NCBI GenBank assembly: GCA_020086605.1 | Contig: JACBWW010000008.1 | Coordinates: forward strand, 27,155,172-27,219,171 | Source: Lanius collurio | Lineage: Eukaryota; Chordata; Aves; Passeriformes; Laniidae | Reading direction: 5' to 3' | Length of the DNA stretch: 64,000 nt | In this document: positions 30,571 through 32,948 of the stretch, in pieces | How the letters are laid out: each line of letters opens with the position of its first letter | Position numbering within the stretch: the first letter of the stretch is position 1 | The notes under the pieces: generated by a model | The model's input: the letters and a program-made list of their open reading frames with translations, nothing else | What the model was told of the DNA's origin: nothing | Database searches by the model: none | Translations under genes and position numbers: made by a program

Positions 30571-30851
30571 TGTTGCAAGGGCGGAATACTTACAACAAGC
30601 ATAAGACAGCGATGAATGTTGGAAGGAAACATGAAGCGATATTTGCTGGAGGTTTAAGGATGTTTATTTCCCTCCAGCCTCACCATGGCTGAGGTCCCAT
30701 GGCTGACCCTCCCAGTCACGGCCCCTGAGCTCTTCCTGGCCCTGGGCACACAAACCAACCAGTCAGGAACAGGTATGGGGCACACGTGACATGGGGCAAC
30801 CCGTACATCCAGGGCCACCCCCCCCAGGACTTTGGGCAAGATATTCCAACA
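30571..30851 (-). repeat. Left LTR (3' LTR of the minus-strand provirus)
   Basis: About 281 bp from TGTTGCAAGG to CCAACA (plus-strand reading), giving a short terminal inverted repeat (TGTTG/CAACA). On the minus strand it carries AATAAA at 30668-30663. It aligns throughout with 32670-32948 and 17846-18136. Confidence 0.92.
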
Positions 30852-30866
30852 TTTCACCCTTTGTTT
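30852..30866 (-). other. Polypurine tract
   Basis: On the minus strand, aaacaaagggtgaaa directly abuts the 3' LTR. This is where the plus-strand primer site of a retrovirus is expected. The position and purine content support the minus orientation. Confidence 0.7.
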
Positions 30867-31096
30867 TTATATAAAAGGAGCATTGGATAACGGCTGGATA
30901 AACATAACAAAAACAATTTCTAAAGAAAATAAGCCAATTTTTGAGTCCCCAAGTGTCCAACAGACTTTCTTTGGAGCATCACAAGAGAGACAGGACTCTG
31001 AGCATGCTTCTTGTGGAAACTGAGTCAGAAAAGGGTTTTTTCTTTTCTATACCTGTTGGAATCTTAGAAAATGACAGATAATTTTTTCCCTCCCTC

Positions 31097-31106
31097 TTTT
31101 TTTTTT
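31097..31106 (-). repeat. A10 run just downstream of the captured ORF
   Basis: On the minus strand a run of ten A, followed by purine-rich sequence, begins 27 bases after the stop at 31134. It could be what remains of the poly(A) tail of the captured mRNA. A chance or retroviral purine run is also possible. Confidence 0.5.
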
Positions 31107-31133
31107 ATCCTCCCATTGGCATTGTAAAGGGGT

Positions 31134-31556
31134 TCATGGCAAACAGCTGTGAGGGGAACCAGGATGGAAGTATGGATTGGGAACACACTGGGTATAGAGG
31201 GGCATGGGATAAAAAGGAAAGATATGATTGGGAAAGGGATACGGATATTGTCCAGCATATCTACTACCCTTTACAGAAGCACCCCCAGGGCCTGTAACAC
31301 ATGCTGCCTGTGGGCCCTTTCTTCCTCGTACAATTTTAAACTCTACCATTTCTCCTCCTTCTAAGCTTGGAACGTTACTTTTGGCGTTACTTCTTATAAT
31401 GCTAGATTTATGCACAAATATATCTTCTTTTGTATCATTCCTAATTATAAAACCATAGTTATTCTTTACATTGTACCACTTCACACTCCCCAGAATTTTA
31501 TCTATGATGATTTTTTCTGTGTAGATGATACTTATTGCCTTGCTGTGTTCCTGCTT
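31134..31556 (-). pseudogene. Y-box-type cold-shock domain ORF inside the provirus
   Basis: The frame is open for 140 codons from just after a TGA (31559-31557) to a TGA at 31136-31134. Its first two-thirds is a cold-shock domain of the YBX1/YBX2/YBX3 type. It has KILGSVKWYNV at the first strand, RNP1 as NNYGFIIR, RNP2 inside NDTKEDIFVH, and the closing VTGPGGASVKGSRYA. The nucleic-acid-contacting Trp, Phe and His residues of this fold are kept. It is only moderately similar to cellular YBX proteins (estimated by eye), with the loop after RNP2 most changed. The usual basic/aromatic tail is replaced by about 38 residues rich in Pro, Tyr and Phe. No ATG lies upstream before the stop; codon 31484-31482 is an internal GTG valine. 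Cellular YBX proteins bind RNA and DNA and control mRNA stability and translation. The copy lacks introns in the domain, which is split by introns in YBX genes. Confidence 0.82.
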
Positions 31557-32252
31557 TCACTTTTGCTTTTGCTCGCTCCCGCATCGGGGCAGCCAGTGCT
31601 GGGATCTGAGCGCTCCTGCCACATGGTTCTGACTTCCTGGGGTCGCCTTCAGGGTGGTGCGGGCCGGGCCAGGCCGCGCTGCTCTGCTCCTTGTGTGCGG
31701 TTTCCGCCAGCTCTTCTGCTGCCTCCTGCCTCTTGCCACAGCCCGCGCTCCACCACCTCTGCTGGGCTCCCACGTGGCTGCCCAGGCACTGCACAGCTCA
31801 GCGCTGCACCATCCCCTTAACCACACTGCTCTGGCGGACCCACGGGGCTTCCCCTCGCCGGCACCGCCGCGCCACTCACGCGTCTCCGGCCTGGCGCAGC
31901 TCACCGTGGTCGCCATAGCAAGTGCCACTGCTGCCGCTGCCGGCTGCTGCTCGCTTGGCACAGTGTTTCTGGGGCTCGAGCCGCCACGTACCACACAGTT
32001 CCACCACCGACTCTGCAGCCCACACCGGCCCCACTCCCGCCATGCCTGGCCTCGCTGGCTCTTGCCTCGCTGGCTCTCCCACACACGGGAGCTCCCTCAC
32101 CGCCGCCCGCAGTGCACGGGGCACCCACGGCCGGGGCCGCGCGGTCTCCGGGGCAATGGAGGAACCCCCTGCAACGCGCACGCTGCTCGACCACGTGTTC
32201 GCTGCTGAAACAGCAGTGGGACACAGCACATATTGCTCAACAGTCTCTGAAA
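31557..32252 (-). pseudogene. GC-rich block between gag-like and cold-shock segments
   Basis: The block is strikingly richer in G, C and CpG than the AT-rich sequences on both sides; the rise begins near 32215 and ends near 31570. In the frame shared with the gag-like and cold-shock segments it is open from 32096 to 31560 (179 codons), with stops at 32099-32097 and 31559-31557. The translation is rich in Ala, Gly, Arg and Trp and matches nothing I know. Cellular YBX genes encode a low-complexity Ala/Pro/Gly-rich N-terminal region from a GC-rich first exon, so this may be the captured 5' part, now diverged. Several long opposite-strand open frames here result from the GC content. Confidence 0.5.
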
Positions 32253-32540
32253 TCAGGTAATATTCACGGAAATATTAAATAATATTAAATAATCTTCCAT
32301 CGGCATATTTTTTGATTCAGAAATTAAATGTGTCCAAACATTCTCCCAAAAGTCTTTGGTAAGAATCAAATCCCAAGAAACATAGAAGTTTTTAAACAAC
32401 CATGCCAGGAATTGTTTTAGTTCTTTTTGAGCTTAAATTAAGCTAAAATCTACATATCGCTGTTCAAGAACATTTTCAAGTTTAAAGTAAATGTCTCTTT
32501 GTGGTTCAGACAGCCATGAGTCTTTCCATGAGTCCTCCAT
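32253..32540 (-). pseudogene. gag matrix-like N-terminal fragment
   Basis: An ATG at 32540-32538 lies about 125 bases after the PBS-like site, as expected for gag. The frame runs 95 codons to a TGA at 32255-32253, with one internal TAA at 32435-32433. The predicted peptide has the helical, aromatic-rich look of a betaretrovirus-type matrix domain, including ELKQFLAWLFKNF and DFWENVWTHL, comparable in spacing to the p10/MA region of MMTV-like Gag. No capsid or nucleocapsid follows; the sequence passes into the GC-rich block in the same frame. The assignment rests on pattern and position, not on an alignment. Confidence 0.5.
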
Positions 32541-32572
32541 CGTTCACAAAGATGGGACAGAAAAACAAAAGC

Positions 32573-32622
32573 AAGAAGAGATAGCCAGAGTTTACTCAAG
32601 AAGAGATATCCAGAGTTTACTC
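32573..32622. repeat. 25-bp tandem duplication in the proviral leader
   Basis: Two 25-bp units (32573-32597 and 32598-32622) differ at a single base. They lie between the PBS-like site and the gag-like ATG. Confidence 0.9.
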
Positions 32623-32649
32623 ATGAATCACTTTCTCCAGCGATTGTTT

Positions 32650-32667
32650 GTCCGCATTTCTCCACCA
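32650..32667 (-). other. Primer-binding-site-like sequence
   Basis: On the minus strand, two bases after the LTR end, TGGTGGAGAAATGCGGAC begins with the TGG that complements a tRNA CCA end. Of the tRNAs I can recall, it resembles the Phe-type PBS most, with several mismatches. The tRNA assignment is uncertain. Confidence 0.45.
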
Positions 32668-32669
32668 TT

Positions 32670-32948
32670 TGTTGCAAGCAGGGAATCCTTACAACAAACA
32701 TAAGACAGCGATGAACACTGGAAGGAAACATGAAGCCGTATTTGCTGGATGTTTAAGGATGTTTATTTCCCCCCAGCCTCACCATGGCCGAGGTCCCATG
32801 GCTGACGGGCCCCAAGCTCTTCCTGGCCCCGGCCTCCAAACCAACCGATCAGGAACAGGTATGAGGCACGCGTGACAGGGGAGCAGGGGCAACCCGTACA
32901 TTCAGAGACCCCTCCCGCACCAGGACTTTGGGGCAAGGTATCCCAACA
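32670..32948 (-). repeat. Right LTR (5' LTR of the minus-strand provirus)
   Basis: About 279 bp from TGTTGCAAGCAGG to CCCAACA (plus-strand reading), with AATAAA on the minus strand at 32767-32762. It is collinear with 30571-30851. Differences include substitutions scattered throughout, a small deletion near 32808 and a small insertion near 32880. Confidence 0.92.

What the first reader, a model, noticed from the sequence alone, without database searches (positions are those of the whole stretch)
30571..32948. A defective endogenous retrovirus appears to have captured a cellular Y-box gene
Seen: paired LTRs (TG...CA) with an exact ATTAAC duplication outside both, a PBS-like and a PPT-like site in the right places for a minus-strand provirus, a gag matrix-like start, and then a Y-box cold-shock domain instead of capsid, pol and env. 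Known: acute transforming retroviruses (for example the avian gag-onc genomes) have this layout, with a cellular cDNA replacing viral genes and a helper virus supplying replication functions. LTR-element-mediated retroposition is also a recognised route to retrogenes where the resident LINE (CR1 in birds) rarely makes processed copies. Inferred: a Y-box mRNA was transduced by an ERVK-like virus and fixed in the germline. I know of no report of a Y-box-transducing retrovirus.
Basis: partly seen in the sequence, partly recalled or inferred. Interest (0 to 1): 0.88.

Follow-up and report, generated by a model that had tools for sequence, protein, structure and literature searches.

The report
Bird LTR element carrying Y-box gene
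The stretch is an old, broken copy of a large bird family of virus-like jumping elements whose single gene carries an RNA-binding domain taken long ago from a normal cell gene, and that domain has stayed conserved while the family multiplied.

Summary
In detail: an LTR pair (30571-30851, 32670-32948), exact ATTAAC duplication, PBS- and PPT-like sites and an intronless Y-box cold-shock domain (CSD; Pfam E 4e-20). The interpretation needs enlarging: this is not a one-off transduction. The 1.10-Gb genome holding the window has a large family (150 scored of 1418 CSD candidates; 150 of 1249 for the N-terminal domain; 183 PBS matches against 0 in the control). Many copies keep one ~500-codon frame: N-terminal domain, variable linker, CSD, Pro/Phe-rich tail. 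Sampled LTR-pair divergence runs from 0.008 to 0.31 (window 0.135), so the fusion has replicated for a long time. N-terminal domain and CSD are constrained (omega 0.48 and 0.43; linker 0.85, tail 0.86). Corvus and Aphelocoma proteins share the module order. YBX1 in this genome has introns inside the CSD that the elements lack; YBX1 is the likeliest donor. Most likely this is a non-autonomous LTR retrotransposon family whose captured CSD binds element RNA, mobilised by helper retroviruses. Helper, matrix identity of the N-terminal domain and RNA function are not shown. Ten text searches listed no report of it.

The parts
30565..30570 (.). target-site duplication ATTAAC (left copy)
   Evidence: read; recovered by the boundary search
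30571..30851 (-). 3' LTR of the element (TG...CA)
30852..30865 (-). polypurine-tract-like site directly upstream of the 3' LTR
   Evidence: recurs in other copies
31134..31256 (-). Pro/Phe/Tyr-rich C-terminal tail of the element protein, shorter here than in intact relatives
   Evidence: intact tails
31257..31499 (-). Y-box cold-shock domain, open here, intronless, RNP motifs kept
31521..32229 (-). GC- and CpG-rich hypervariable linker, frame broken in this copy (aligned part 31891-32226)
32230..32540 (-). conserved N-terminal domain in the gag position (putative matrix), one in-frame stop and a frameshift here
32650..32667 (-). primer-binding site, TGGTGGAGAA(A)TGCGG.. (tRNA-Ala-like, assignment recalled)
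   Evidence: 183 genome matches with at most 1 mismatch to the family form against 0 for the pattern read backwards
32670..32948 (-). 5' LTR of the element (TG...CA)
32949..32954 (.). target-site duplication ATTAAC (right copy)
   Evidence: read

Best explanation
The locus is an old inactivated member of a large non-autonomous LTR retrotransposon family of passerine birds. Long ago an LTR element took in cDNA of a spliced host Y-box mRNA, most likely YBX1. The result is one gene in place of gag-pol-env: N-terminal domain, hypervariable linker, Y-box CSD, aromatic/Pro-rich tail. Shown: the layout, the multiplicity, intron loss, the spread of ages, and constraint on both folded modules. Inferred: the protein acts as a Gag-like ribonucleoprotein factor whose CSD binds, stabilises or packages the element's RNA, taking the place of nucleocapsid. 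Reverse transcriptase, integrase and particle shell come from helper retroviruses.
For: The interior gives 76 matching pieces, the window's own included (40 of 1178 candidates scored); the long ones are 71-87% identical. CSD: 150 scored of 1418 candidates, 12 of 150 in stop-free frames of 497 codons or more. NTD: 150 scored of 1249. All 20 copies fetched match the window's interior; 19 of 20 also match its LTRs (not L060), and all 20 have a repeat pair at LTR spacing. A 6-bp duplication with TG..CA ends was found in 12 of 21 elements, window included; not in the other 9. Ten of 20 fetched copies have ATG-to-stop frames of 500 codons or more (16 of the 20 were chosen for long frames). Pooled omega: NTD 0.48 [0.35-0.66], CSD 0.43 [0.31-0.60], linker 0.85, tail 0.86. 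RNA-contact residues W65, F74, F85, H87 (numbering recalled) kept in 60/63, 61/63, 62/64 and 64/64 element rows. Host YBX1 exons lie apart in L068 but the matching blocks adjoin in L070. Same module order in Corvus and Aphelocoma proteins. Published passages: YB-1 stabilises HIV and MLV viral RNA (PMC6040738).
Against: No helper was identified: 0 of 150 scored NTD places lie within 4 kb upstream of any of the 150 scored Gag_p24 places, one within 10 kb (lists). No relative of the NTD outside this family was found. No expression, RNA-binding or mobilisation data were available. A protein supplied in trans would not normally keep its own template's frame intact, so the constraint needs cis-preference or a host role. 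Against some old copies the window's ratios are high (NTD 0.87 and 2.47).
Confidence: 0.78

Rival explanations
1. The conserved frame is kept because the element protein acquired a role in the host embryo or germline, as proposed for gag-encoding families ENS-1 and Bhikhari; RNA packaging is secondary.
For: Layout like ENS-1 and Bik-2, described as non-autonomous ERV variants with reported developmental roles (PMC10996621 passages; PMC3958431 passages). Constraint on the protein fits either view.
Against: Constraint is seen across many dispersed copies rather than at one fixed locus. No expression data were available here.
Confidence: 0.15
2. One reading: a single event at this locus in which an ERVK-like virus transduced a Y-box mRNA, as acute transforming viruses do.
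For: LTRs, target duplication and cellular cDNA in place of viral genes at this locus.
Against: At least 150 CSD relatives were scored, many with the shared junction; other copies are much younger, and corvids have the same fusion.
Confidence: 0.03
3. A processed Y-box pseudogene that by chance lies between two unrelated solo LTRs.
For: Y-box retrocopies and solo LTRs are both common in vertebrate genomes (recalled).
Against: The same arrangement recurs at many places, with 6-bp duplications in 12 of 21 and a conserved PBS.
Confidence: 0.01
4. The donor was YBX3 or YBX2 rather than YBX1.
For: Element motif GSRYA is shared with YBX2 and YBX3, VKGSRYAPN with YBX2. In the CSD tree the elements do not nest inside the YBX1 or YBX2 group, and bird YBX3 was not in it.
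Against: Bridging protein P0114 aligns to YBX1 for 135 residues, past the CSD, but to emu YBX2 only to the end of the CSD. L070 exon-4 DNA is 75.0% to YBX1 and 71.7% to YBX3; for L069 it is only 71.7% against 70.7%. Many elements carry KVIATKVLG-like residues as YBX1 does.
Confidence: 0.2

Closest known systems
ENS-1/Soprano (ERNI), chicken ERV with a non-autonomous variant
   Same: Avian LTR element whose variant ENS-1 is called non-autonomous, a single Gag-type product, young near-identical copies (PMC3958431 and PMC10996621, passages)
   Different: ERNI has a coiled coil, HP1 box and a predicted capsid fold; here a cold-shock domain and no capsid is detected
Bhikhari-1/-2, zebrafish ERV families
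   Same: Bik-2 (like Bik-1) encodes gag but neither pol nor env (PMC10996621 passages)
   Different: They encode a Gag; here most of the frame is a captured host RNA-binding domain plus linker and tail
Acute transforming retroviruses with gag-onc fusions (recalled)
   Same: Cellular cDNA replaces viral genes downstream of a gag-position start; a helper is needed
   Different: Those are recent tumour isolates; this is a multi-copy germline family of wide age range, and the cargo is a conserved RNA-binding domain
YBX1/YBX2/YBX3 Y-box proteins
   Same: Cold-shock domain with the RNA-contact residues kept
   Different: No basic/acidic C-terminal repeats, no introns, new N-terminal domain and tail
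LTR retrotransposons of bdelloid rotifers with captured extra ORFs (PMC5408684, search listing with start of abstract only)
   Same: LTR elements that acquired extra ORFs
   Different: From the listing, those ORFs come in addition to the usual ones; here the captured domain is part of the only frame

Membership tests
LTR retrotransposon / endogenous retrovirus | paired LTRs with TG..CA ends and a short target duplication | tested here: met
   window and 11 of 20 fetched copies have a 6-bp duplication with TG..CA; 9 of 20 do not by this automatic search
LTR retrotransposon / endogenous retrovirus | PBS behind the 5' LTR and PPT before the 3' LTR | tested here: met
   the tRNA-Ala assignment is recalled, not tested
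LTR retrotransposon / endogenous retrovirus | many dispersed copies with the same interior | tested here: met
non-autonomous LTR element | no pol or env of its own | tested here: met
   three intact frames (L020, L030, L046) give CSD as the only Pfam family above its cut-off; the interior is about 1.8 kb and the rest of it was not scanned by profile
ERVK (class II) retrovirus | reverse transcriptase or gag/pol of class II | not testable with these tools
   no pol detected in the element and no helper found; a 6-bp duplication is only compatible
Retroviral Gag | matrix domain recognised by profile or fold | tested here: inconclusive
   no Pfam or PDB profile hit; structure prediction unavailable
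Retroviral Gag | capsid (Gag_p24) domain in the same frame | tested here: not met
   also 0 of 150 scored NTD places within 4 kb upstream of a scored Gag_p24 place
Y-box protein | Y-box cold-shock domain with RNP motifs | tested here: met
Y-box protein | basic/acidic C-terminal repeats | tested here: not met
   tail is Pro/Phe/Tyr-rich; P0114 keeps a YBX1-like start of the C-terminal region
Acute transforming retrovirus | recent single transduction with viral gene replacement | tested here: not met
   multi-copy family of wide age range
ENS-1/Soprano family | ERNI-type coiled coil / capsid product | tested here: inconclusive
   no capsid family by Pfam; ERNI itself was not aligned here

The most novel reading that the evidence does not exclude
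A passerine-wide class of retroelements in which a captured host cold-shock domain has replaced the nucleocapsid: an NTD-CSD Gag that selects and packages its own RNA in cis and parasitises the particles and enzymes of unrelated retroviruses. This would be a new kind of RNA-recognition module for a retroelement.
Probability: 0.35. Interest if true: 0.88.

Novelty: new variant of a known kind. Interest (0 to 1): 0.76.

Why it matters
Host-gene capture by retroviruses is known mainly as short-lived oncogene transduction (recalled). Here a captured host RNA-binding domain became the lasting gene of a mobile family: conserved across subfamilies, some copies still with near-identical LTR pairs, and the same fusion deposited from two corvid genera that are diverged from this genome's copies. 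It offers a natural test of how retroelements recruit RNA-binding modules (published passages report that YB-1 stabilises retroviral RNA) and of why a non-autonomous element keeps a protein-coding frame at all. It also warns annotators: such copies are listed as uncharacterised proteins in bird proteomes.

Tried and rejected
One-off transduction: rejected by multiplicity. Coincidental solo LTRs: rejected. IMG/VR search: one weak hit (34%, L047), not pursued. ENS-1/ERNI as the same family: kept as an analogue only; ERNI was not aligned. Matrix identity of the NTD: not shown by Pfam, the NTD protein search or the PDB. One search failed on wrong coordinates of mine; one search held one wrong slice (L024) and was redone without it. 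Helper: Gag_p24 places are plentiful (150 scored of 261 candidates), but a scripted comparison of the lists gave 0 of 150 NTD places within 4 kb upstream of one (one at 7.3 kb, whose own frame is 499 codons) and 0 of the 69 exact PBS places within 10 kb (lists). The lists are capped, so this is weak evidence. Of six LTR loci beyond the window pair, four showed only an LTR of this family within 1.5 kb and two were CSD elements. Linker against YBX1 exon 1: no DNA match at E 1e-3. Check on whether the genome is itself Corvus moneduloides: P0001 finds at best 47-56% identity over most of its length, 79% in one NTD-only match, so no.
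Full report
What is there. On the minus strand of 30571-32948 lies a 2.4-kb element with LTRs at 32670-32948 (5') and 30571-30851 (3'), flanked by ATTAAC on both sides. A PBS-like site follows the 5' LTR and a purine-rich site precedes the 3' LTR. Between them, in the sense direction, come an N-terminal domain (NTD) starting at 32540, a GC-rich linker, a Y-box cold-shock domain (31499-31257) and a short tail. 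Pfam gives CSD at 4.2e-20, and the closest solved structures are Y-box proteins. This copy is inactive: one stop and a frameshift in the NTD, and a broken linker; the CSD is open.

It is a family. The interior gives 76 matching pieces including the window itself, with only 40 of 1178 candidates scored; the long pieces are 71-87% identical. The CSD as protein gives 150 matches (the cap, 1418 candidates), 12 of them in stop-free frames of 497 codons or more. The NTD gives another 150 of 1249 candidates, all 88% identical or more. The PBS in its family form occurs 183 times with at most one mismatch, against 0 for the pattern read backwards; 16 of the 69 exact ones lie within 2 kb before a listed NTD. 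LTR searches show many further LTRs (40 scored of 1485); of six LTR loci looked at beyond the window's own pair, four had no interior of this family within 1.5 kb. Some counts include haplotype duplicates: contigs C18 and C19 look like alternative versions of one region.

Anatomy of the family. I fetched 20 copies, 16 chosen for long frames and 4 for closeness to the window. All 20 match the window's interior and 19 of 20 its LTRs (the exception, L060, still has a 92% repeat pair at LTR spacing). Twelve of 21 elements (window included) show a 6-bp duplication with TG..CA ends under an automatic boundary search; nine do not. Ten of the 20 have ATG-to-stop frames of 500 codons or more. CSD is the only Pfam family above its cut-off in the three frames scanned. 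A second, more diverged NTD type occurs with the same kind of CSD, so the modules have been re-assorted or have diverged deeply. A further subfamily (L069, L070) has its own LTR pairs (82.5% and 86.7% self-repeat identity) and a CSD closer to YBX1.

Time. Ungapped LTR-pair divergence, Jukes-Cantor corrected, is 0.008 in the youngest of the 21 sampled pairs and 0.017-0.117 in 16; the window has 0.135, and three others 0.146, 0.195 and 0.313, the last poorly aligned. With a passerine neutral rate of about 2.5e-9 per site per year (recalled), the window copy would be roughly 27 million years old and the youngest under 2 million. These are rough figures.

Selection. With sites weighted by the transition bias measured on LTR pairs (kappa about 3.2), pooled pairwise omega is 0.48 [0.35-0.66] for the NTD (35 copies) and 0.43 [0.31-0.60] for the CSD (44), against 0.85 [0.75-0.95] for the linker (28) and 0.86 [0.64-1.14] for the tail (36) (which drops one copy counted twice; only copies covering at least 70% of a module enter). 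An unweighted count gave 0.31, 0.31, 0.70 and 0.70 for NTD, CSD, linker and tail. Unweighted, the window's NTD and CSD against three younger copies gave 0.13-0.17 and 0.22-0.25; against three older ones the ratios were higher (0.35-0.49 for the CSD; 0.19, 0.87 and 2.47 for the NTD, the last on few differences). Pairwise pooling counts shared branches repeatedly and includes neutral decay after insertion, so these are not formal tests. The contrast between modules within the same frames is the argument. The residues that contact RNA in YBX1 (W65, F74, F85, H87; numbering recalled) are kept in 60/63, 61/63, 62/64 and 64/64 of 64 element rows, nine of them deposited proteins.

Origin. In this genome YBX1 (L068) has its CSD spread over exons at about 696-763, 4112-4147, 6237-6327 and 6541 onward. 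In element L070 the matching blocks run 1532-1599, 1631-1722 and 1721-1799, that is, joined where the host has introns. The source was therefore spliced mRNA. YBX1 is the best donor candidate. L070 DNA of exon 4 is 75.0% identical to YBX1 and 71.7% to YBX3 (L080; identified as YBX3 by its GPDGVPVEGSRYAADRRRYRRG exon; the name is recalled); for L069 the difference is only 71.7% against 70.7%. The CSD tree (47 rows, midpoint root) puts all NTD-bearing elements on one side of a 98/94 branch and P0114, Junco and zebra finch proteins with the hosts. It does not place the elements inside YBX1 or YBX2, and bird YBX3 was not in it.

Distribution. Proteins with the same module order are deposited from Corvus moneduloides (P0001-P0003, P0110, P0112; one cluster of 24 sequences) and Aphelocoma coerulescens (P0111); P0002, P0003, P0110 and P0112 are partial at one end. 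P0001 finds only 47-56% identical full-length relatives in this genome, with 79% in one NTD-only match, so the two genomes hold diverged branches of the family. In the tree Corvus 1, 2 and 4 group with L076 and L078 (99/95), inside a set that also holds other lineages of this genome, which suggests that more than one lineage predates the split. Junco (P0084) and zebra finch (P0097) proteins have related CSDs but other N-termini; their status is open. No other bird with this architecture stood in the listed hits, but one search scored only 8000 candidates and another printed 120 of 290 hits.

How it probably works. Shown: a compact LTR element with the signals for reverse transcription, no enzymes detected, and a conserved two-module protein. 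Inferred: the CSD binds element RNA. Passages of PMC6040738 report stabilisation of viral RNA by YB-1 for HIV and cite the same for MLV vectors, and find MLV and RSV integrase with YB-1, so a Y-box domain is a plausible RNA factor for a retroelement. Enzymes and shell must come from helpers. Gag_p24 domains in long open frames are abundant in this genome (150 scored of 261 candidates), so possible helpers exist, but none was tied to this family. Why the frame is conserved although the machinery acts in trans is open: cis-preferential packaging, or a host role as proposed for ENS-1 and Bhikhari Gags (PMC10996621 passages).

Literature. Ten searches of the held library listed no paper on a Y-box or cold-shock domain in an endogenous retrovirus; several printed only the top rows of longer lists. 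Two bird repeat papers have no 'cold shock' or 'Y-box' in their main text (PMC7757076 and PMC11009239, word search only). The library lacks most subscription papers, and repeat libraries such as Repbase were not available, so the LTR family may already carry a name there.

Noticed in passing
window 17846-18090 (-): A second LTR of the same family (70-74% to the element's LTRs) with no interior detected elsewhere in the window: a probable solo LTR.
   Followed up: partly
window 32572-32627: A 25-bp unit repeated 2.2 times between PBS and NTD of this copy.
   Followed up: no
window 37828-37884: TCCTTT array of 8.8 perfect copies ending at a 4-N gap (37881-37884), probably an assembly break in a simple repeat.
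   Followed up: no
window 49368-49742: 375-base run of N.
   Followed up: no
G000 contigs C18 and C19: Nearly equal lengths and parallel matches suggest two haplotypes of one region in the assembly, which inflates copy counts.
   Followed up: no
P0056 (Lissotriton helveticus, 586 aa): Uncharacterised newt protein with a long N-terminal part and a C-terminal Y-box domain; possibly an independent fusion.
   Followed up: no
P0084 (Junco hyemalis, 303 aa): Y-box domain joined to an FCP1_C match (Pfam 9.5e-16): either a gene-model artefact or an exonised element.
   Followed up: no
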